From a virus: a stretch of 64,000 nucleotides of DNA. Under the pieces are notes generated by a model. The model saw only the letters and a program-made list of their open reading frames with translations. It was not told where the DNA came from and did not search any database. Position numbers and translations under genes: made by a program. Where the stretch lies: the IMG/VR virus record IMGVR_UViG_3300030616_000017, positions 62,001 through 126,000 of that record, one strand, 5' to 3'. Positions 4,824 through 54,956 of this stretch are shown piece by piece. Numbering within the stretch: the first letter of the stretch is position 1; every line of letters begins with the position of its first letter.

Positions 4824-5531
4824 TTAAATATTTTTAGTGTAAAAATCTACAGCTCTCTCCCAACTTTCGTCTGAAAGATATAGAGGATCTCGAAGATTAT
4901 TTTCTAGAAACGCTTCCGTTCTTTCTACGCAAGACCCGCATTTTCCGCAAGGCTCCTCTCCCCCTTTGTAACAGGTCCATGTTTTAGAGTAATCGACTCC
5001 GAGCTTGATTCCTCTTTCCAAAATAGAAATCTTATTCAAATGAACAAAGGGAGCTGACATCGTTGCTTCTTCATATGTTCCATACTTAATAGCTTGCGCC
5101 ATTGCTTGTTCAAACTCAGGACGACAATCGGGATAGATAGCATGGTCCCCCGCATGGGCCCCATATAGAATATAATTACATTTTTCTGCTTCTGCAATTG
5201 CGGCTAGAATAGAAAGGATAATTCCATTTCTAAAAGGCACAACTGTTGACTTCATATTTTCGTCTGCATAATTCCCCTCCGGAATAGCCTCCGCTCCTTG
5301 TACAAGGGAGGAGGTTTTAGCAGCGATCTCTCCCAAAAACGAAATATCAATTAAACGATGAGGAATGTTATTCGTTTTGCAATGCTCTGCTGCAAGCTCT
5401 ATTTCTTTGGAATGATTCTGTCCATAATAAAACGAGACAGCTTCGAGCTCAAAGCCTTCGTTAAGTGCATGATACAACAAAGTAGTAGAATCCATTCCCC
5501 CTGAAAGGGCAATAACTGCTTTTCTTTTCAC
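4824..5531 (-). CDS. queC: QueC, 7-cyano-7-deazaguanine (preQ0) synthase
   Basis: 235 aa, full length. Converts 7-carboxy-7-deazaguanine to preQ0 using ATP and ammonia. Seen: the PP-loop ALSGGMDST at residues 8-16, the YYGQNHSKE segment, and the C-terminal zinc site TCYKGGEEPCGKCGSC with four cysteines. The stop of the upstream kinase overlaps its ATG (ATGA type), so the two are translationally coupled. With FolE, QueD and QueE from the same operon it completes preQ0 synthesis for DNA modification. Confidence 0.95.
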   Translation of the reverse strand: MKRKAVIALSGGMDSTTLLYHALNEGFELEAVSFYYGQNHSKEIELAAEHCKTNNIPHRLIDISFLGEIAAKTSSLVQGAEAIPEGNYADENMKSTVVPFRNGIILSILAAIAEAEKCNYILYGAHAGDHAIYPDCRPEFEQAMAQAIKYGTYEEATMSAPFVHLNKISILERGIKLGVDYSKTWTCYKGGEEPCGKCGSCVERTEAFLENNLRDPLYLSDESWERAVDFYTKNI

Positions 5532-6067
5532 TTCAAATCTCCTTTAATAAAATTAATAATATGATGGGCTTTTATAAGGGGAGGGCCAGGTAACTGCACG
5601 GCACGCAATTCGTAGTTTTCTATATAAGTTAAAAAGAGATTATGAGTTTCTTCCCTGAACTCTTTATTGACACTTCTTACTCCATCTTCAATAACAGCTA
5701 TTTCAGGAGGAAGATAAAAAAACACGTCATATTTATCATAAGTTTTTTCAAAAATGTTCAAAAAATACAAAAAATAGGATTCAGGAATCATTTTATGATA
5801 ATATGAGTACGTGGTATATACCATTGCATCCAATACCGATCTATCTGTAATAATATTACCTTTTATTATATTAGATAAATGCTCTAAAAAAACAAAAGCC
5901 TGAGTACAAGATGTCCCCTCTTCATTGATAGCTACGCCCATATTTTTTAAGGTGCGCACTATTTCGGTCTTAAATTCAAAATTATCTTTAAGATAATTAT
6001 CTTCGCGAAGTAAAGCCATTGTTTCTGTTTTGCCAGTACACTGAACACCCGATAAGCTAATAAGCAT
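5528..6067 (-). CDS. P-loop nucleoside/nucleotide kinase-like protein (AAA_28-like)
   Basis: 179 aa. Walker A GVQCTGKTE at residues 7-15. ITDRSVLDAMVY near 75 is a DRS-type motif as in deoxynucleoside kinases and NadR-like kinases. FYLPPEI near 117 fits the Walker-B-like strand. It lies between DpdA and QueC, so it may phosphorylate a nucleotide or a modified base intermediate; the substrate is unknown. A second, different dNMP kinase is encoded at 41975-42562. Confidence 0.65.
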   Translation of the reverse strand: MLISLSGVQCTGKTETMALLREDNYLKDNFEFKTEIVRTLKNMGVAINEEGTSCTQAFVFLEHLSNIIKGNIITDRSVLDAMVYTTYSYYHKMIPESYFLYFLNIFEKTYDKYDVFFYLPPEIAVIEDGVRSVNKEFREETHNLFLTYIENYELRAVQLPGPPLIKAHHIINFIKGDLK

Positions 6068-6925
6068 TTATTTCTCCTTTTTTTGCTTTAAAAATAATTC
6101 CCTGTCAATTATTGCTTTTTCCAACGATAAATATTTTTCATCTTTTATTAGCTGTTTGAAAAAGCGTATATTATATATAATATCCGAAGTTTGATCAAAA
6201 GTCAATTCAGCAAGTAAATTATCTGCTAATTTTCCTTCAGGCTTCGTCTCAAGCCCCTTATCCCCAGAGTATCTCACGTTATTGATACCTGCCATTATGG
6301 GGCTGCTGGTATCTATAGTTTCTATGAAAGAAGAATCTCTATAAAAAGAAAATTCATAAGGAAGAGCGCAGCCCAACAGATGATGCGGTTTCTTTTTATT
6401 TAGGATTTTCTTAGTAGATAACTGATAAACAAATCTTTGACGGGCTTTTACCAATTTTTCATCTTTGGAGAAATTGTCGCCGAATTGTTCCAAATAACAA
6501 GGAAGGCCAAAAGTTATAGCAATTTTATCCGCGTGTTCACTCATAAATCTATAGCATTCAAATAACTCAGTCCAAGTGCTTCCTTGCACCACGCCTATAG
6601 CTTTGCCTGGTAAATTAGGATATTTCTTTGTAAAATCTTTAAACTGGTTTATGGTAAGATTTTTATCTCCCCAAGCATCGGGAACAATATATTCTGTAGG
6701 TTTTAGTTTCTTAATCCAATAAGCAAAACGGTCCGCTTCGAAACTTTCTCCTAATTCAAAAAGACTATTATCTAATATAACTCGCCTACCCTCTAAAAGA
6801 GAGTCCTCAAAAAAAGAATAATAAGAAGGGTGTTCTTCAAAAAGATGAACGAGGGCATAGTCATAATCATTGAATATTTTGCTAATGTCTAATAGTTCTA
6901 AAGGAACTTCGTGTGCTACTTCCAT
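6068..6925 (-). CDS. dpdA: DpdA-like transglycosylase inserting 7-deazaguanine into DNA
   Basis: 285 aa TGT-fold protein of the phage DpdA type, which swaps guanine for preQ0 or a derivative in DNA. Seen: ILDNSLFELG at residues 50-59, VPDAWGD at 81-87, GVVQGSTW at 111-118, HHLLGCALPYEF at 181-192, and a candidate nucleophile region IDTSSPIM at 204-211. There is no C-terminal zinc site as in tRNA TGT. It is flanked by QueC and, upstream, by YhhQ, FolE, QueE and QueD, which strongly supports the function. No QueF is in the window, so the inserted base is probably preQ0 unless genes elsewhere change it. Confidence 0.82.
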   Translation of the reverse strand: MEVAHEVPLELLDISKIFNDYDYALVHLFEEHPSYYSFFEDSLLEGRRVILDNSLFELGESFEADRFAYWIKKLKPTEYIVPDAWGDKNLTINQFKDFTKKYPNLPGKAIGVVQGSTWTELFECYRFMSEHADKIAITFGLPCYLEQFGDNFSKDEKLVKARQRFVYQLSTKKILNKKKPHHLLGCALPYEFSFYRDSSFIETIDTSSPIMAGINNVRYSGDKGLETKPEGKLADNLLAELTFDQTSDIIYNIRFFKQLIKDEKYLSLEKAIIDRELFLKQKKEK

Positions 6926-6934
6926 GTACTCTCC

Positions 6935-7420
6935 CTAAAAGAAAAATGTATGCGTATTAGCTATATATCTTGCCCTTTCTCTCAAAGAAAAAAATTCCTC
7001 TCTATATCTGTTGCTGTTTTTATAAGATCCTAAATACGATAAAAGATTTTCCATAAACTCGTTTTGTTTTTGATGTATATAGCCTTTTTTAAGCCATCTT
7101 TTATTTCTTGCGTGTAAATCTACAAACGTTTTATAAACATCTTCTATGTTGTAGTCTCCTATGGAAGAGTCTTCTACTTCAAAAGAAAAAGAAGGTTGCG
7201 CTTCGACCGAAGCCAAAAACGCATAAGCTTTACGTTTATCTTCTCCTTTAAGAGAGATAGCGCAACCTTTGATGTAATTAACGATTATATCTTTATAATC
7301 GTGATTGAACCTGCCTTCAGCAAACCTTCCTATTCTTACTTCCTTTTCTTCCCAAGAAAGCCCCTTCAAAGAAGCTCTGAAAACCTGCCAATCCATTCTG
7401 TACTTGTCTACCTTGCTCAT
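6935..7420 (-). CDS. Hypothetical protein, 161 aa
   Basis: No family recognised. The protein is highly charged and aromatic (MDWQVFRASLKGLSWEEKEVRIGRF, KRWLKKGY) and ends in THTFFF. A promoter (7428-7456) places the predicted transcription start at or next to the ATG, with no ribosome-binding site, so the mRNA is probably leaderless. It is the first gene of a sub-operon that continues into DpdA, the kinase and QueC. Confidence 0.65.
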   Translation of the reverse strand: MSKVDKYRMDWQVFRASLKGLSWEEKEVRIGRFAEGRFNHDYKDIIVNYIKGCAISLKGEDKRKAYAFLASVEAQPSFSFEVEDSSIGDYNIEDVYKTFVDLHARNKRWLKKGYIHQKQNEFMENLLSYLGSYKNSNRYREEFFSLRERARYIANTHTFFF

Positions 7421-7427
7421 AGTAGAT

Positions 7428-7456
7428 ATTGTACCCTATTATTTAAGAAGTTTCAA
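7428..7456 (-). promoter_or_regulatory. Sigma-70-type promoter with start at the ATG
   Basis: Minus strand: TTGAAA (7456-7451), 17 bases, TACAAT (7433-7428). Only seven bases separate the -10 box from the ATG at 7420, which implies a leaderless transcript. Confidence 0.6.
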
Positions 7457-8069
7457 GTGCCGTGCCCTCAAATTCCCCTGTTTTTCCTTTAGTAAACAAG
7501 TAAAAGAACGGGGTATCTACTGCAGCAATTATTAGCTTGAGTACGTACTGGGAAATAATCATCCACCACAGATCAGGAACGATGCCCGCAAAAGCTATAG
7601 TAATAAAAATAGAAGTATCAATAAGCTGACTAGTCATAGTGCTTGCATTATTTCTTAGCCATTTATGTTTTCCCTTGGTAAAAGATCCTAACTTATGGAA
7701 AAACCATACGTCCCACGACTGGGATAAATAATAAGCAATCATCGAAGCCATTACCAGTCGGAAATTCATTCCCAGCAAGACCTTATAAGCATCGGCCTGT
7801 GCCTGAGCAAAGGGCGGAGAAGGCATAAGCTGAGTCAAATAAATCATACCAGCCGCGAACAGCGAACAAATAAAACCCGTCTGTACAAGCTTTATCGCTT
7901 CCTTTTTTCCCCACAACTCTGAGGTGAGATCCGTCATTAGAAAGGTAATGGCATAAAGAAGAAAGGCTCCCGGAACAATAAATCCAAAGATATTAAGTAC
8001 CTTCCCCGCCACCACATTTGAAACTACCAGAGCAGCAATAAACAAACTCTGAATAAGCAGCTTTTTCAT
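7443..8069 (-). CDS. yhhQ: YhhQ/VUT-family queuosine precursor transporter
   Basis: 208 aa integral membrane protein with about six hydrophobic segments. It matches the VUT (formerly DUF165) family that imports preQ0 or preQ1. Seen: the SNVVAGKV start, a TDLTSELWGKKEA loop near residues 47-59, and TMTSQLIDTSIFITIAFAG near 143. A phage that both makes preQ0 (FolE, QueD, QueE, QueC) and imports it is notable. It lies between the dCTP deaminase-like gene and the leaderless orphan upstream of DpdA. Confidence 0.88.
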   Translation of the reverse strand: MKKLLIQSLFIAALVVSNVVAGKVLNIFGFIVPGAFLLYAITFLMTDLTSELWGKKEAIKLVQTGFICSLFAAGMIYLTQLMPSPPFAQAQADAYKVLLGMNFRLVMASMIAYYLSQSWDVWFFHKLGSFTKGKHKWLRNNASTMTSQLIDTSIFITIAFAGIVPDLWWMIISQYVLKLIIAAVDTPFFYLFTKGKTGEFEGTALETS

Positions 8070-8077
8070 TAGTCCTC

Positions 8078-8569
8078 CTATTTATAATCTTTATGGCCCT
8101 GCCATTGGCCATTGTATAAGTTTTCTTCTTTTACTTCCTCTTTATTTTCAACCATATAAATCTGCGCAACTCTCGCATGCCTTTCAATCACTAACTCACT
8201 AAAGGGAAGAAGAAGAATAGCTCCACAATATTCTGTCTCGAAACCTGCGTCGTATACGCCGCTAGTAATCAAACCTCCTGCCCTGGCCACACTACTTCTA
8301 TGTCGTATAAAAGCGGTAGCCCACGCAGGAACTTTAATACCCTGATCAAATGTTAAAGCGTAAACCCCAGGAGTAAGACGGTATTGAGATCTTGCTTTAA
8401 CTTGAAAAACAGGTTCATAGTCGTTGATAATAGTCTCATCCCGGTTTACAACCCCTCCTTTAATACGATTAACGTATTTAAGAGTTAGGTCGTAGCCTAT
8501 TTGAGTTTTCTTACCTTCCACGTCGTGAATGCGAAGGTAAGAAAACAGTTCATCTGCTGATAATATCAT
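8078..8569 (-). CDS. dCTP deaminase / dUTPase-family protein
   Basis: 163 aa trimeric dUTPase-fold protein. Seen: IRHRSSVARAGGLITSGVYDAGFETEY near residues 87-113 (the RSS..R.G...D.GF core) and LYNGQWQGH at the C-terminus, as in Dcd-type enzymes. It lowers dUTP or supplies dUMP, fitting the uracil-DNA glycosylase downstream in the same operon. The choice between Dcd, bifunctional Dcd-Dut and plain Dut is not certain. Confidence 0.8.
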   Translation of the reverse strand: MILSADELFSYLRIHDVEGKKTQIGYDLTLKYVNRIKGGVVNRDETIINDYEPVFQVKARSQYRLTPGVYALTFDQGIKVPAWATAFIRHRSSVARAGGLITSGVYDAGFETEYCGAILLLPFSELVIERHARVAQIYMVENKEEVKEENLYNGQWQGHKDYK

Positions 8570-9190
8570 TTACTTTCCCTGTTTAATAAGGTGGAAAAAT
8601 TCTTCCCTTACTTCTGGCTTAGAGCGAAATACTCCTCTCAAATCAGAGGTTCGCATGCTTGAATTCTCGCTCTCTTCTACACCCCTCATCACCATACACA
8701 TATGGGTGGCCTCAATAAAAACAGCTACGCCGAGAGGATCAAGAGTTTCCTGCACAAAATCCGCTATCTGCTTTGTTAACTCCTCTTGGATTTGGGGTCT
8801 ACGCATAAACCATTTAGTAATGCGTACCAGCTTACTAATTCCTACCACTTTGTCACCCGGAATATAAGCTACATAAGCGTTCCCCAGGAAAGGCATCCAA
8901 TGATGAGAACACATACTCTTAATCTGAATAGGTCCAAGCACAACCATTTCATCGTATTCTTTTGTATTAGGAAAAACAGTAATCTTAGGTTGCTCATCAT
9001 AATTCCCAGAAAAGACCTCATTAACATACATTTTAGCTATGCGGTGAGGCGACTCCTCAAGCTGAGGATCGTTTCGGTTGAAATGAAGAAGATCAAAAAT
9101 CTCTTCAAACTTTTCTTCTACTTTAGAAATCATATCATCCTTCTCTTCGCGGGTGAGGACAACATTGTCATTACTAACAATAGGTGACAT
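8570..9190 (-). CDS. folE: FolE, GTP cyclohydrolase I
   Basis: 206 aa, typical length. Makes dihydroneopterin triphosphate from GTP, the first step toward preQ0. Seen: [11 protein letters not shown] near residues 46-56, the zinc/catalytic [12 protein letters not shown] near 91-102, [10 protein letters not shown], and HMCMVMRGV near 163-171. Stop and start codons abut the dCTP deaminase-like gene, and its start lies just inside the end of the pyrimidine-dimer glycosylase-like gene. Confidence 0.95.
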
Positions 9191-9530
9191 TAAATAACTC
9201 CTTTTTATTTTTAATATTTTCTCTACAATAAGGACAACGCTTGTTTAGTTCTTTCAAACTGTTTTCGCTGTCTACTGATCCTGCTTCATACAGAAGGCTG
9301 TATTCATCGTCTTTTATAGGACTTTTATGGTTGTAGCCTCTCTTCAACATTTCCTCTACTAGGGCGTCATGTCTTTTAATTACATTATGAACTTCTACAA
9401 GACCGTTAGTAATATAACCCCTTAAAGAAATTCCTTTTCTTAGAGACCCCAGTAAAGTATGCATTTCCCTGTGCTCCCCCAGTAAATGTGATCTGCACAT
9501 TATAGAAGGGTCCACATTCCACATTCTCAT
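9174..9530 (-). CDS. Pyrimidine-dimer DNA glycosylase / endonuclease V-like protein
   Basis: 118 aa. Residues 1-60 ([30 protein letters not shown] and [28 protein letters not shown]) match the Pyr_excise family related to T4 DenV. The C-terminus adds a CPYC motif. The start is at 9530 because an AAGGAG box lies 6 bases upstream; the longer reading from 9554 has none. Probable role: repair of UV or other base damage. The gene splits the que genes. Confidence 0.8.
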
Positions 9531-9531
9531 T

Positions 9532-10218
9532 TTATACTCCTTGAATATTACCAAAAATTATAATATGACTTCTTAGAGAAAGGTTCCAGCCTCTCTCTAT
9601 AAGAATATCATAATATTTTTTCACAATACCTAAAATAGTTTTTGCATCTACTCCTTTGGGTTGAATGTAGATTCTTTCAGAAGGTATAGAATGATTCTTT
9701 TGTTCTTCTATAATATAACCTAAATCTTCATCATTTTCTAGTAAAAACTTAACTATTTTATTTGAGTAGCCTATATCGAGAAGGTAGGGGTAAGTAGCTT
9801 TCTGCAAGCCGGCGCTGTCTTGAGCTACGTTAGTTTTGGGGGAAATGTTAAGCTTAACATTATACTTTTTAAACAAAGACAACACCATTTCATTAGGTAC
9901 CAATGTCCCGTTTGTTTCAATTTCAAATGAAATCTTATCTCCATAGTCCACCAAAAAATCTACAATAAAGCCCTCATGCTTAGGAAGAAGTGGTTCTCCC
10001 CCTGTTATAACTACATTAGAGGTTTTCTTGATCATCTCCCCCACTGTTTCTGCATTATAGGCAATCCCATTATCTGTCCATGTAAACTTAGAATCACAAA
10101 AAGAACATCTAAGATTGCACCCGGGAAATCGAATAAAAAGGGAGTGTTTACCTTGTGTATCTCCTTCTCCCTGAAACCCATAGAAAGGCTCTTCTGCGAG
10201 ATAAATTAATTCTTTCAT
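9532..10218 (-). CDS. queE: QueE, 7-carboxy-7-deazaguanine synthase
   Basis: About 228 aa radical SAM enzyme converting carboxytetrahydropterin to 7-carboxy-7-deazaguanine. Seen: YGFQGEGDTQGKHSLFIRF, the cluster motif CNLRCSFC (CX3CX2C) in residues about 30-45, VVITGGEPLL, and FEIETNGT. The start was placed at MKELIYL (10218), which overlaps the queD stop as TAATG with a GGAG box inside queD; the upstream MRRLGL reading lies within queD. Confidence 0.92.
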   Translation of the reverse strand: MKELIYLAEEPFYGFQGEGDTQGKHSLFIRFPGCNLRCSFCDSKFTWTDNGIAYNAETVGEMIKKTSNVVITGGEPLLPKHEGFIVDFLVDYGDKISFEIETNGTLVPNEMVLSLFKKYNVKLNISPKTNVAQDSAGLQKATYPYLLDIGYSNKIVKFLLENDEDLGYIIEEQKNHSIPSERIYIQPKGVDAKTILGIVKKYYDILIERGWNLSLRSHIIIFGNIQGV

Positions 10219-10589
10219 TAGTCCCAATCTCCGCATTCACACCATGTCTGCTTCCCCACGGCTGTCTCATACACCCTTACCTTAAATTCTAGGCTAGGAT
10301 TAGAAAGCTTAACTTCGTCGTAAAACCGTTGGCAGAGATTTTCTGCTGTAGGGTTAATATTGTCGAATGGAGCGATGTCGTTAATAAATTGGTGATCGTA
10401 CATTTCCTTCAATCGTTTGACATTCCCAAAATCCCAAAGAATCCCTACTTCATCTACTTGAGAAGACTCTCCTCTAACCCACACTTCTACGAACCAAGTG
10501 TGCCCATGAATCCTGCTACAGTTGCCATCATATCCTCTGAGCTGATGAGAACTGTCTATAGTTGTCTCTGTATGCAATGTAAGTATCAC
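10218..10589 (-). CDS. queD: QueD, 6-carboxy-5,6,7,8-tetrahydropterin synthase
   Basis: 123 aa. Converts dihydroneopterin triphosphate to carboxytetrahydropterin. Seen: the first zinc histidine in SSHQLRG (residue 15), the catalytic Cys in DGNCSRIHGHTW with the HGH pair near 29-31, and YETAVGKQTWCECGDW at the end. The start is GTG with a strong AGGAGGAG box. A TTTACA-N17-TATTAA promoter inside the preceding gene may serve it. Confidence 0.92.
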   Translation of the reverse strand: MILTLHTETTIDSSHQLRGYDGNCSRIHGHTWFVEVWVRGESSQVDEVGILWDFGNVKRLKEMYDHQFINDIAPFDNINPTAENLCQRFYDEVKLSNPSLEFKVRVYETAVGKQTWCECGDWD

Positions 10590-28615: not shown

Positions 28616-29827
28616 ATGAAACTTTTCACAGAAACATGGAAACAAAAGATGCAGGATATCATTGTAGGTATTCAGTATCTTTTCGTAGCGGCAGGAGCAA
28701 CAATTCTTGTTCCTCTGTTAACAGGTATTCCTGTATCAGTATGCGTAGTGACAGCTGGTATAGGGACTCTTATTTTTCACTTCATTACGGGTAAGGGAGT
28801 ACCTGTTCTTCTTTCTTCATCGTTTGCATTTATTGCGCCGATTGTGGCTGTAAAAGAACTATATGGTTTGCCTTTTGCATACGGAGGAGTTATTGTAGCT
28901 GGTTTATTGTACTTACTGTTTGCAGCTCTTATCTATTTTGTTGGGTTAGAGTTTATTAAAAAACTATTTCCCACCCCTGTGACAGCAACGATGGTAATTC
29001 TAATCGGTTTAATTTTAGCTCCTGTTGCGATTTCAAGTGCTTCACAAAACTGGATTATTGCTTTGATTACTCTTGCTGCTGGAGCTGCTATTAAAGTTGT
29101 GTGGGATAATAAATTCATTGGCTCATTAGCTATAATTGGAGCAATGGCTGTAGGATATCTTGTTTCAATAGCAGCAGGAATTGTAGATGTAAGCGCTGTT
29201 CAAGCAGCTGCGCTTGTAGGTGTTCCTGAATTTCAATTACCTCAATTTAATGCAAACGCTATTATGATTATTGCTCCGATTGCTATTGTAACATTTCTAG
29301 AACATTTTGCAGATATTTCCGCAGTGAGTAAAGTAGTTGAAAAAGATTTTCTAAAAGATCCTGGTGTACATAAAACATTGATAGGCGATGGTATAGCAAC
29401 AGCAATTGCTGGTTGTTTAGGAGGTTGTCCTAATACCACGTATTCAGAAAATATAGGGGCATTAGAGATTACAGGAGTTAAGAGAGCTAGCGTACTAAGA
29501 ATAACAGCTATAGCTTTAATCGTGGTAGGGTTTCTTCCTAAGATTGCATACCTTATTCATTCTATTCCTGCTCCTGTTGTGGGAGGAATCAGCATTCTTC
29601 TTTTCGGTCTTATCTCAGCAAATGGAGTTAAAAACCTAGTACAAGAACAAATTGATCTCAAAGATCATAAGAACCTCTTTATTATAGCGTCCATGTTAAT
29701 TGTTGGTGCTGGAGGCTCAGTTATTGAAATAGGTTCAGTTACATTTTCCAGCTTAGCTCTTGCAGCTCTTGTAGGTATAGTGATGAACGTAGCGTTCAAT
29801 TGGAAAACTTTTTTCAAAAAAAGTTAA
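28616..29827 (+). CDS. NCS2-family uracil/xanthine permease
   Basis: 403 aa with about 12-14 hydrophobic helices. Family signatures: LLSSSFAFIAPI, IAPIAIVTFLEHFADISAVSKVV, GCPNTTYSENIGALEITGV and PAPVVGGISILLFGLISANGVK, matching UraA-type nucleobase:proton or sodium symporters. A strong AGGAGG box precedes the ATG. It imports uracil or a purine base; the QPNTTYGENIG-like loop favours uracil. Such a transporter is rare in phage. It may feed pyrimidine supply during infection. The gene stands alone between a terminator and the tmRNA-like RNA. Confidence 0.92.
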   Translation: MKLFTETWKQKMQDIIVGIQYLFVAAGATILVPLLTGIPVSVCVVTAGIGTLIFHFITGKGVPVLLSSSFAFIAPIVAVKELYGLPFAYGGVIVAGLLYLLFAALIYFVGLEFIKKLFPTPVTATMVILIGLILAPVAISSASQNWIIALITLAAGAAIKVVWDNKFIGSLAIIGAMAVGYLVSIAAGIVDVSAVQAAALVGVPEFQLPQFNANAIMIIAPIAIVTFLEHFADISAVSKVVEKDFLKDPGVHKTLIGDGIATAIAGCLGGCPNTTYSENIGALEITGVKRASVLRITAIALIVVGFLPKIAYLIHSIPAPVVGGISILLFGLISANGVKNLVQEQIDLKDHKNLFIIASMLIVGAGGSVIEIGSVTFSSLALAALVGIVMNVAFNWKTFFKKS

Positions 29828-29835
29828 GAAAGTAG

Positions 29836-29864
29836 TTGAAAAATCTCTTTCGCTTGGTTATATT
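29836..29864 (+). promoter_or_regulatory. Promoter of the tmRNA-like RNA and first tRNA cluster
   Basis: TTGAAA (29836-29841), 17 bases, TATATT (29859-29864). The predicted start falls at about 29871-29874, the first base of the tmRNA-like acceptor stem. Confidence 0.7.
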
Positions 29865-29873
29865 ATGAGGAGA

Positions 29874-29978
29874 GGGGGAGAAAATGGATTCGACTGCTAC
29901 ACTGCTGAAGCGACGAAAGGCCCAAAGTAACGAAAGCTGAGGTGTAGCAGGACTCGGGTTCGATGCCCGACTCCTCCA
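29874..29978 (+). ncRNA. Minimal tmRNA-like RNA (105 nt) without a normal mRNA-like domain
   Basis: Acceptor GGGGGAG (29874-29880) pairs with CTCCTCC (29971-29977), with G3-U70 at the third pair and A73, the alanine identity set of tmRNA. The D-region AAAATGGATTCGA matches the conserved tmRNA form (GGAUUCGAC) and has no D-stem. A perfect 9-bp helix (CTGCTACAC 29894-29902 with GTGTAGCAG 29942-29950) takes the place of tmRNA helix P2. The T-arm is TCGGG-TTCGATG-CCCGA. Only a 39-nt loop (29903-29941) replaces the pseudoknots and tag region of a normal ~350-nt tmRNA. A short frame GCT GAA GCG ACG AAA GGC CCA AAG TAA lies in the loop but may be chance. Own promoter; tRNAs follow. CCA is not encoded. 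Confidence 0.8.
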
Positions 29979-29991
29979 AAATAAAAAATAT

Positions 29992-30081
29992 GGGCAAGTG
30001 GCGAAGCTGGTTGAAACGCATGAGACTTAAAATCTCATACCCAAGCGGTAAACATCGTGGGTTCGATCCCCACCTTGCCTA
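29992..30081 (+). tRNA. tRNA-Leu(UAA)
   Basis: Acceptor GGGCAAG/CTTGCCT. Anticodon arm TGAGA-CTTAAAA-TCTCA with UAA. Long variable arm (type II) and T-arm GTGGG-TTCGATC-CCCAC. CCA not encoded. Confidence 0.93.
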
Positions 30082-30085
30082 ATAT

Positions 30086-30159
30086 GGCACCTTAGCTCAG
30101 CTGGATAGAGCATGAGATTTCTAATCTCAGGGTCACAGGTTCGAATCCTGTAGGTGTCA
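30086..30159 (+). tRNA. tRNA-Arg(UCU)
   Basis: Acceptor GGCACCT/AGGTGTC, D-arm GCTC...GAGC, anticodon loop TTTCTAA (UCU), T-arm ACAGG-TTCGAAT-CCTGT, discriminator A. CCA not encoded. Confidence 0.93.
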
Positions 30160-30160
30160 T

Positions 30161-30171
30161 ACTAATATAAA
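30161..30171 (+). promoter_or_regulatory. ACTAATATAAA motif between tRNAs
   Basis: ACTAATATAAA lies two bases after tRNA-Arg and a few bases before tRNA-Lys. It could be a promoter element or a spacer shared among tRNA units. Confidence 0.3.
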
Positions 30172-30175
30172 AAAT

Positions 30176-30248
30176 GGACCGTTAGCTCAGTCGGTAGAGC
30201 AACGCACTTTTAATGCGTAGGTCACAGGATCGTAGCCTGTACGGTTCA
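30176..30248 (+). tRNA. tRNA-Lys(UUU)
   Basis: Acceptor GGACCGT/ACGGTTC, D-arm GCTC...GAGC, anticodon arm ACGCA-CTTTTAA-TGCGT (UUU). The T-loop reads ATCGTAG, so position 54 is A rather than T and the loop loses its standard T54-A58 pair. CCA not encoded. Confidence 0.88.
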
Positions 30249-30252
30249 CTAA

Positions 30253-30324
30253 GGTTTATTCGTATATTGGTTAGTACGCTGGATTGTCGATCCAGAAGGC
30301 GGGGTTCGATTCCCCGATAGACCG
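30253..30324 (+). tRNA. tRNA-Asp(GUC)
   Basis: Acceptor GGTTTAT/ATAGACC, anticodon arm CTGGA-TTGTCGA-TCCAG (GUC), T-arm GGGG-TTCGATT-CCCC, discriminator G as expected for Asp. Confidence 0.9.
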
Positions 30325-30368
30325 TTTTTGTAAGAAATCTATATAGTTTTTTCTTACAAAATCTCTTT

Positions 30369-30442
30369 GCTCCCTTCGTCTAATCGGTTAGGATATCGCC
30401 CTTTCAAGGCGAAGATATCGGGTTCAAGTCCCGTAGGGAGTA
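30369..30442 (+). tRNA. tRNA-Glu(UUC)
   Basis: Acceptor GCTCCCT/AGGGAGT, anticodon arm TCGCC-CTTTCAA-GGCGA (UUC), T-arm CGGG-TTCAAGT-CCCG. Last tRNA of the first cluster. Confidence 0.92.
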
Positions 30443-30453
30443 AAACATTTTAC

Positions 30454-37516: not shown

Positions 37517-37517
37517 T

Positions 37518-37602
37518 AGCGGGGTAGAGTAGAGGTCAAACTCGGTGGTCTCATAAGCCACTGCACGAAAGTGCTCGTTGGGTTCAATTCCCACCCCCGT
37601 TA
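37518..37602 (+). tRNA. tRNA with CAU anticodon and long variable arm (type II)
   Basis: Acceptor AGCGGGG/CCCCGTT, three-pair D-stem GAG/CTC with GG in the loop, anticodon arm GTGGT-CTCATAA-GCCAC (CAU), variable arm with a TGCAC-GAAA-GTGC hairpin, T-stem with four pairs, discriminator A. CAU tRNAs (fMet, Met, Ile2) are normally type I, so the amino-acid identity is unclear. The acceptor and D-region look partly initiator-like. Confidence 0.75.
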
Positions 37603-37619
37603 TACCTTTTTATATCAAT

Positions 37620-54709: not shown

Positions 54710-54830
54710 CCTAATTAGCTTAAAGGTAAAAGTGTCCTCACATCATCAAACAGAAAGTAGGGTTTTGAGAGCTCTCCCCACCGAGCTGTTTGTAGAGGAA
54801 GAGACGTGGGTTCAATTCCCGCGATTAGCC
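54710..54830 (+). ncRNA. tRNA-like RNA with extended anticodon arm (121 nt)
   Basis: Acceptor CCTAATT (54710-54716) pairs with GATTAGC (54823-54829) except at the first pair. A D-arm (CTT-AAAGGTAA-AAG), a 5-nt variable loop (GAGAC) and a standard T-arm (GTGGG-TTCAATT-CCCGC) are present. The anticodon stem TCCTC/GAGGA does not close on a 7-nt loop. It continues into a second stem CAAACAG (54747-54753)/CTGTTTG (54786-54792) and a ~32-nt apical region. No anticodon is evident. It may be an intron-bearing tRNA, a tRNA mimic or a decayed tRNA. Confidence 0.55.
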
Positions 54831-54956
54831 GTAGAATAGTAAAAGAAGAGTATGTAACCCTTTCTGAAAAGGAGGTTGCTTTTTGAAGTTTTTCTAATAA
54901 CATTCACTACTTGCGTTGCAAGAAAGCAAACCAAAAATGAAAGGAGTAAAAACATC

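What the first reader, a model, noticed from the sequence alone, without database searches (positions are those of the whole stretch)
29874..29978. A 105-nt minimal tmRNA-like RNA in a phage
The RNA has every visible landmark of the tmRNA tRNA-like domain: a 7-bp acceptor with G3-U70 and A73 (the alanine identity set), the conserved GGATTCGAC D-region without a D-stem, a T-arm, and a P2-like perfect 9-bp helix. The ~250 nt that hold the tag frame and pseudoknots in a normal tmRNA are replaced by a 39-nt loop. Established knowledge: some mitochondrial tmRNAs have lost the mRNA-like domain, while known phage tmRNAs are full length as far as I know. Inference: it could rescue stalled ribosomes without tagging, use a very short tag (a frame GCT...TAA is present), or act as an alanylated SmpB/EF-Tu mimic. 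The loop also holds ACGAAAG twice.
Basis: partly seen in the sequence, partly recalled or inferred. Interest (0 to 1): 0.92.

Follow-up and report, generated by a model that had tools for sequence, protein, structure and literature searches.

The report
Phage tmRNA stripped of its tag
This phage encodes a 105-base RNA that keeps only the tRNA-like half of the bacterial ribosome-rescue RNA, and the same stripped-down RNA turns up, mostly unannotated, in many unrelated phages, probably to charge with alanine and block or divert the host's ribosome rescue.

Summary
Window 29874-29978(+) scores 59.9 bits against Rfam tmRNA (RF00023, cut-off 47), aligned end to end with the tag/pseudoknot region skipped. 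It has a 7-bp acceptor with G3-U70, A73, GGATTCGAC without a D-stem, a T-arm, and a 9-10-bp P2 closed by a 39-nt loop. It sits behind a 10/12 sigma-70-like promoter and heads a tRNA array.

It is not a one-off. Pattern scans of viral contigs gave 35 more contigs (24 further distinct sequences, 61-122 nt). All 25 have a perfect acceptor, invariant G3-U70 and A73, and strong compensatory change. A covariance model built without the window finds it (48.7 bits) and unannotated copies in Streptomyces phages LuckySocke, BRock, Alone3 and pSt2308.

A precedent exists: mycobacteriophage DS6A carries a "TLD only" tmRNA, and such an RNA inhibits tmRNA in E. coli (PMC4131195, PMC11915505).

Likely mechanism (inferred): an alanylated SmpB/EF-Tu ligand that competes with host tmRNA. 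Invariant G3-U70 suggests charging matters, beyond simple SmpB titration. A tag in the loop is unsupported.

The parts
29836..29864 (+). sigma-70-like promoter TTGAAA-17-TATATT just upstream of the RNA
   Evidence: 10 of 12 consensus matches; 5 promoter-like sites found in the 1.1 kb scanned against 2.1 expected, so suggestive only
29874..29978 (+). TLD-only tmRNA (G1 to A73, 105 nt; CCA not encoded)
   Evidence: RF00023 59.9 bits; R1 model built without it 48.7 bits
29874..29880 (+). acceptor stem 5' strand GGGGGAG (G3 at 29876)
29886..29894 (+). D-region GGATTCGAC, no D-stem
29894..29902 (+). P2 5' strand CTGCTACAC
   Evidence: P2 covariation in relatives
29903..29941 (+). 39-nt loop that replaces tag frame and pseudoknots; ACGAAAG at 29913 and 29930; frame GCT GAA GCG ACG AAA GGC CCA AAG TAA (no evidence of use)
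29942..29950 (+). P2 3' strand GTGTAGCAG
29954..29970 (+). T-arm TCGGG-TTCGATG-CCCGA
29971..29978 (+). acceptor 3' strand CTCCTCC (U70 at 29975) and A73
29991..30443 (+). five-tRNA array (Leu, Arg, Lys, Asp, Glu) downstream; none encodes CCA

Best explanation
The locus encodes a TLD-only (CDS-less) tmRNA. Shown: it is homologous to tmRNA, keeps acceptor, G3-U70, A73, D/T elbow and P2, lacks tag frame and pseudoknots, and belongs to a phage RNA class under selection for that structure. Inferred: it is transcribed with the tRNA array, trimmed by host RNase P, given CCA by the host CCA-adding enzyme, charged by host AlaRS, and bound by host SmpB and EF-Tu. As Ala-TLD-SmpB-EF-Tu it competes with host tmRNA for SmpB and for stalled ribosomes, and can accept a nascent chain without offering a resume codon. 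The net effect would be to block or divert host trans-translation (tagging, proteolysis, nonstop-mRNA decay) during infection.
For: Rfam match above cut-off over the whole model. 25/25 distinct relatives keep the 7-bp acceptor, G3-U70 and A73 although positions 4-7 carry up to 5 pair types. Covariation score 0.766 against 0.151 shuffled; 134 double-change cells against 38. Model R1, built without the window, finds it at E 3e-9. No SmpB, RF-1-domain protein or full-length tmRNA in the records holding these RNAs (0 of 30), so host partners are needed. Loops of 3-6 nt in L038, L040, L041, L052 rule out tagging there. Published: DS6A TLD-only tmRNA; a similar RNA strongly inhibits tmRNA in E. coli, perhaps by titrating SmpB (PMC4131195, PMC11915505). 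The 61-63-nt forms resemble the engineered SmpB-binding TLD construct of PDB 2CZJ (5' 25 nt + 3' 34 nt joined by UUCG; PMC3985003).
Against: No expression, charging, SmpB-binding or phenotype data for this RNA. The cited inhibition works 'whether or not chargeable', so it does not explain invariant G3-U70. G3-U70 could partly reflect repeated recent capture from host tmRNAs. The window's 39-nt loop is longer than in most relatives and its role is unknown. The host is unidentified.
Confidence: 0.6

Rival explanations
1. Untagged rescue: Ala-TLD-SmpB enters stalled ribosomes, accepts the nascent chain, and the complex is then dismantled by host factors (for example peptidyl-tRNA hydrolase). The phage thus recycles ribosomes without degrading its proteins, as proposed for mitochondrial tmRNAs.
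For: Invariant G3-U70 and A73 imply charging matters, which rescue requires; mitochondrial tmRNAs without a tag frame persist together with SmpB (PMC11915505).
Against: No stop codon or release step is provided; no phage-encoded RF-1-domain protein was found in these records; the published effect of a TLD RNA is inhibition (PMC4131195).
Confidence: 0.2
2. Full but miniature trans-translation: the 39-nt loop serves as a very short message (A)EATKGPK-stop.
For: A GCT...TAA frame is present at 29904-29930.
Against: 40% of shuffled loops contain such a frame; relatives with 3-6-nt loops cannot encode a tag; pseudoknots are absent; the peptide lacks a usual hydrophobic/LAA end.
Confidence: 0.03
3. 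Decaying remnant or attachment-site scar of a captured host tmRNA.
For: Temperate phages use the ssrA 3' end as attachment site; 3'-end-only, unannotated blastn matches to named phages occur.
Against: The whole TLD, both acceptor strands and P2 are intact here; 25 lineages show compensatory change; in the syntenic Streptomyces set P2 letters differ while pairing is mostly kept.
Confidence: 0.05
4. Alanyl-RNA donor or decoy for something other than trans-translation (for example an Ala-tRNA-using transferase, or tRNA-cleaving defence enzymes).
For: Charging identity is conserved; several members lie in phage tRNA arrays.
Against: The conserved D/T elbow without D-stem, and P2, are SmpB-type features that a plain Ala minihelix or tRNA decoy would not need; no common neighbouring gene.
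Confidence: 0.1

Closest known systems
Mycobacteriophage DS6A TLD-only tmRNA (Mao et al. 2009, as cited in PMC4131195 and PMC11915505)
   Same: [quoted passage not shown] a similar RNA inhibits tmRNA in E. coli.
   Different: The DS6A record was not in the collections, so sequences were not compared; the window form has a 39-nt loop, lies in a tRNA array of a phage with unknown host, and belongs to a much wider set of lineages than the one reported.
Canonical bacterial tmRNA (RF00023)
   Same: Acceptor with G3-U70/A73, D-region, P2, T-arm; passes the gathering score.
   Different: No supported tag frame, no pseudoknots; 105 instead of ~360 nt.
Mitochondrial and Mallomonadaceae plastid CDS-less tmRNAs (PMC11915505)
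   Same: Lost the mRNA-like region.
   Different: Mitochondrial ones are mostly permuted genes beside a nucleus-encoded SmpB; this is a standard-order one-piece phage gene.
Engineered T. thermophilus TLD fragment in the SmpB crystal structure PDB 2CZJ (PMC3985003)
   Same: 5' 25 nt plus 3' 34 nt joined by a 4-nt loop, nearly the layout of the 61-63-nt phage forms L038, L040, L052.
   Different: A laboratory construct lacking CCA; the phage RNAs are natural genes.
Full-length or permuted phage tmRNAs (for example Melnitz, PMC9004378)
   Same: Phage-borne ssrA homologues.
   Different: They keep a tag frame and presumably perform trans-translation.

Membership tests
tmRNA (RF00023) | covariance-model match above the gathering score | tested here: met
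   59.9 bits against 47, model 1-374; 28 of 30 related records also over cut-off
tmRNA (RF00023) | 7-bp acceptor with G3-U70 and A73 | tested here: met
tmRNA (RF00023) | D-region GGAUUCGAC without D-stem, T-arm, P2 | tested here: met
tmRNA (RF00023) | mRNA-like domain with resume codon, tag and stop | tested here: not met
   288 model positions skipped; the only frame in the loop is of a kind expected by chance; relatives with 3-6-nt loops
tmRNA (RF00023) | pseudoknots PK1-PK4 | tested here: not met
   no room in a 39-nt loop; not predicted
CDS-less / TLD-only tmRNA (DS6A type; 'Standard, no CDS') | standard gene order, TLD kept, mRNA-like region lost | tested here: met
CDS-less / TLD-only tmRNA (DS6A type; 'Standard, no CDS') | inhibits host tmRNA when expressed | not testable with these tools
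   shown only for a DS6A-like RNA in the literature (PMC4131195)
CDS-less / TLD-only tmRNA (DS6A type; 'Standard, no CDS') | sequence and structure comparison with DS6A itself | not tested
   record absent under the accessions tried
Permuted tmRNA (RF04321) | 3' half upstream of 5' half | tested here: not met
   25.3 bits, below cut-off 47; both halves in standard order
tRNA | D-stem and anticodon arm | tested here: not met
   ARAGORN finds no tRNA here; no RF00005 match above threshold at the site

The most novel reading that the evidence does not exclude
Phages of many lineages carry a dedicated RNA class, chargeable TLD-only tmRNAs of 61-122 nt, that disables or reroutes host ribosome rescue through SmpB and stalled ribosomes: an RNA-based counter to trans-translation in which alanylation is part of the mechanism.
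Probability: 0.55. Interest if true: 0.88.

Novelty: new variant of a known kind. Interest (0 to 1): 0.76.

Why it matters
One odd phage (DS6A) was the documented case found of a tmRNA reduced to its tRNA-like domain. Here the form is shown to be widespread in phages, structurally constrained, and invisible to ARAGORN. That points to host ribosome rescue as a repeated target of phages, and gives a testable question: why must the RNA stay alanylatable if titrating SmpB is enough? Named Streptomyces phages make it testable in laboratory strains.

Tried and rejected
First pattern (42-72-nt gap) gave only tandem tRNAs and permuted tmRNAs, which briefly suggested a singleton; shorter and relaxed gaps found the class. 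Genome contigs pattern hit L014 is a chance match inside a likely coding sequence. L036 (a tRNA-Glu) and L050 were rejected. Terminase and ORF665 scans found no informative relative; the terminase alignment was too diverse. blastn hits in Pseudomonas SM1, Xanthomonas Rb1, S-CAM1/3, DLP_6, QDWS359 and Tunturi_4 are permuted tmRNAs, not minis. Attachment-site scar, tag-in-loop and significance of the ACGAAAG repeat were rejected. No shared neighbouring gene explains function. Pattern in 396 genomes of one bacterial phylum: 2 matches; one is the rejected L014 match, the other (a 39-nt match) was not examined for an acceptor.

Full report
Observation. The RNA is at 29874-29978 on the + strand as described. 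Against all Rfam families the site gives RF00023 tmRNA at 59.9 bits (cut-off 47, E 6e-21), spanning model positions 1-374 with 288 positions of the mRNA-like/pseudoknot region skipped. Permuted tmRNA reaches only 25 bits, below its cut-off. ARAGORN calls nothing there. The fold is 3.7 standard deviations more stable than dinucleotide shuffles. It is the only RF00023 match above cut-off in the 147-kb virus record. A sigma-70-like promoter (TTGAAA-17-TATATT, 29836-29864) lies 9 nt upstream and five tRNA genes without encoded CCA follow, so the absence of an encoded CCA is in keeping with its neighbours.

Relatives. A first pattern scan with a gap fitted to the window returned only tandem tRNAs and permuted tmRNAs, and a bacterial-genome scan returned one chance match. 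Scans of viral contigs with other gap sizes and a relaxed T-stem then gave 37 contigs. Two are not tmRNA-like (L036 a tRNA, L050 chance). The other 35 contigs hold 24 distinct RNAs of 61-122 nt, 25 with the window. The patterns fixed only the D-region and the T-arm core, not the acceptor, P2 or position 73. Even so, all 25 have 7 of 7 acceptor pairs, G3-U70 and A73, and 5 of 5 T-stem pairs. The acceptor 5' strand was chosen as the best of four linker lengths (3-6 nt), a small freedom. Positions 4-7 of the acceptor show up to five pair types each. P2 is paired in 92.7% of cells. Over the 18 pairs the covariation score is 0.766 against 0.151 +/- 0.020 after shuffling, and 134 cells carry double changes against 38. 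When partners are slid, the score falls to 0.08-0.13. Rfam accepts 28 of 30 of these records, counting the window's own and two named phages.

Independent test. Model R1 was built from ten other sequences, the window left out. It finds the window at 48.7 bits, E 3e-9. It also finds unannotated stretches in tRNA arrays of isolated Streptomyces phages: LuckySocke OR725497 17977-18054 (63.4 bits), BRock KX925554 97143-97220 (60.1), pSt2308 (65.1), Alone3 (42.6) and Tomas (40.9); in Tomas the D-region departs from consensus. LuckySocke and BRock pass RF00023 (57.1 and 64.5 bits). In these phages the RNA follows tRNA-Val(tac); P2 letters differ while pairing is mostly kept, and an inner element GAAAGCC.CA.G.GG is nearly invariant.

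Anatomy of the class. Most members are 76-82 nt: acceptor, 3-5-nt linker, GGAUUYGAC, P2 of 5-9 pairs, often an A-rich bulge and a small inner hairpin, then GGAN, T-arm, acceptor, A73. The smallest, 61-63 nt, have 4-6-nt loops, close to the engineered TLD construct crystallised with SmpB (PDB 2CZJ: 5' 25 nt and 3' 34 nt joined by UUCG; PMC3985003). The window (39-nt loop), L033, L055, L056 and L057 are the large-loop members; L055 and L056 pair poorly in P2. Some encode CCA, others do not.

Partners. No SmpB, no RF-1-domain protein and no second tmRNA above cut-off were found in the records holding these RNAs, including the window's own. Most records are fragments, so the absence is weak evidence. 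Flanking genes share nothing.

Literature. [quoted passage not shown] PMC11915505, both citing Mao et al. 2009, which was not held). The 2025 database counts nine 'Standard, no CDS' sequences among 97,179. Seven literature searches found no report of a wider phage class, within an open-access library only.

Mechanism. Shown: homology, loss of the message, and selection on acceptor, P2 and T-arm. From established knowledge: G3-U70 with A73 is the AlaRS identity, and the elbow and P2 region is what SmpB and EF-Tu read. Inferred: competition with host tmRNA by an alanylated TLD. If SmpB titration were all, G3-U70 could drift; it has not in 25 distinct sequences, so charging is probably part of the function, unless each RNA was captured recently and separately. 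An Ala-TLD that accepts a nascent chain yet gives no resume codon would be a stronger block than SmpB titration. Untagged rescue remains the main rival.

Verdict. As a single RNA this is a new case of a form known from one phage. As a class it is new in extent and in the evidence for conserved alanine identity. Hosts, expression and effect are untested.

Noticed in passing
window 54710-54832: Unannotated tRNA-like sequence: acceptor- and D-arm-like 5' part, TCCTC/GAGGA stem with a ~54-nt structured insertion where an anticodon loop would be, then a T-arm. ARAGORN with introns allowed finds nothing; weak RF00023 match of 17.7 bits.
   Followed up: partly
window 37517-37603: 87-nt tRNA with anticodon CAT but a long (class II) variable arm; ARAGORN draws 8 acceptor and 4 T-stem pairs. 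Unusual for a Met tRNA; could be Leu-like with a CAU anticodon.
   Followed up: partly
L064 (Tunturiibacter phage Tunturi_4, PP885687): An annotated RF-1-domain protein (gp53) lies directly beside an unannotated permuted tmRNA (79 bits RF04321): a phage with two ribosome-rescue-like genes side by side.
   Followed up: partly
L060, L061, L062, L063, L067, L068: Permuted or cyanobacterial-type tmRNAs in named phages (Xanthomonas Rb1, Pseudomonas SM1, Stenotrophomonas QDWS359 and DLP_6, S-CAM1, S-CAM3) with no tmRNA annotated at the match.
   Followed up: partly
L023 5916-6012 (-): Pistol ribozyme match (50.7 bits, cut-off 34.5) on a viral contig that also carries a mini-tmRNA.
   Followed up: no
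window 4824-10236 (-): Genes that look by eye like QueC, GTP cyclohydrolase and QueE plus a YhhQ-like transporter: probable 7-deazaguanine DNA modification or queuosine pathway of the phage; no family search was run.
   Followed up: no
window 28616-29827 (+): A purine/uracil permease-like gene (phrog_20031, E 7e-66; best phage relatives ~40% identical) directly upstream of the RNA.
   Followed up: no
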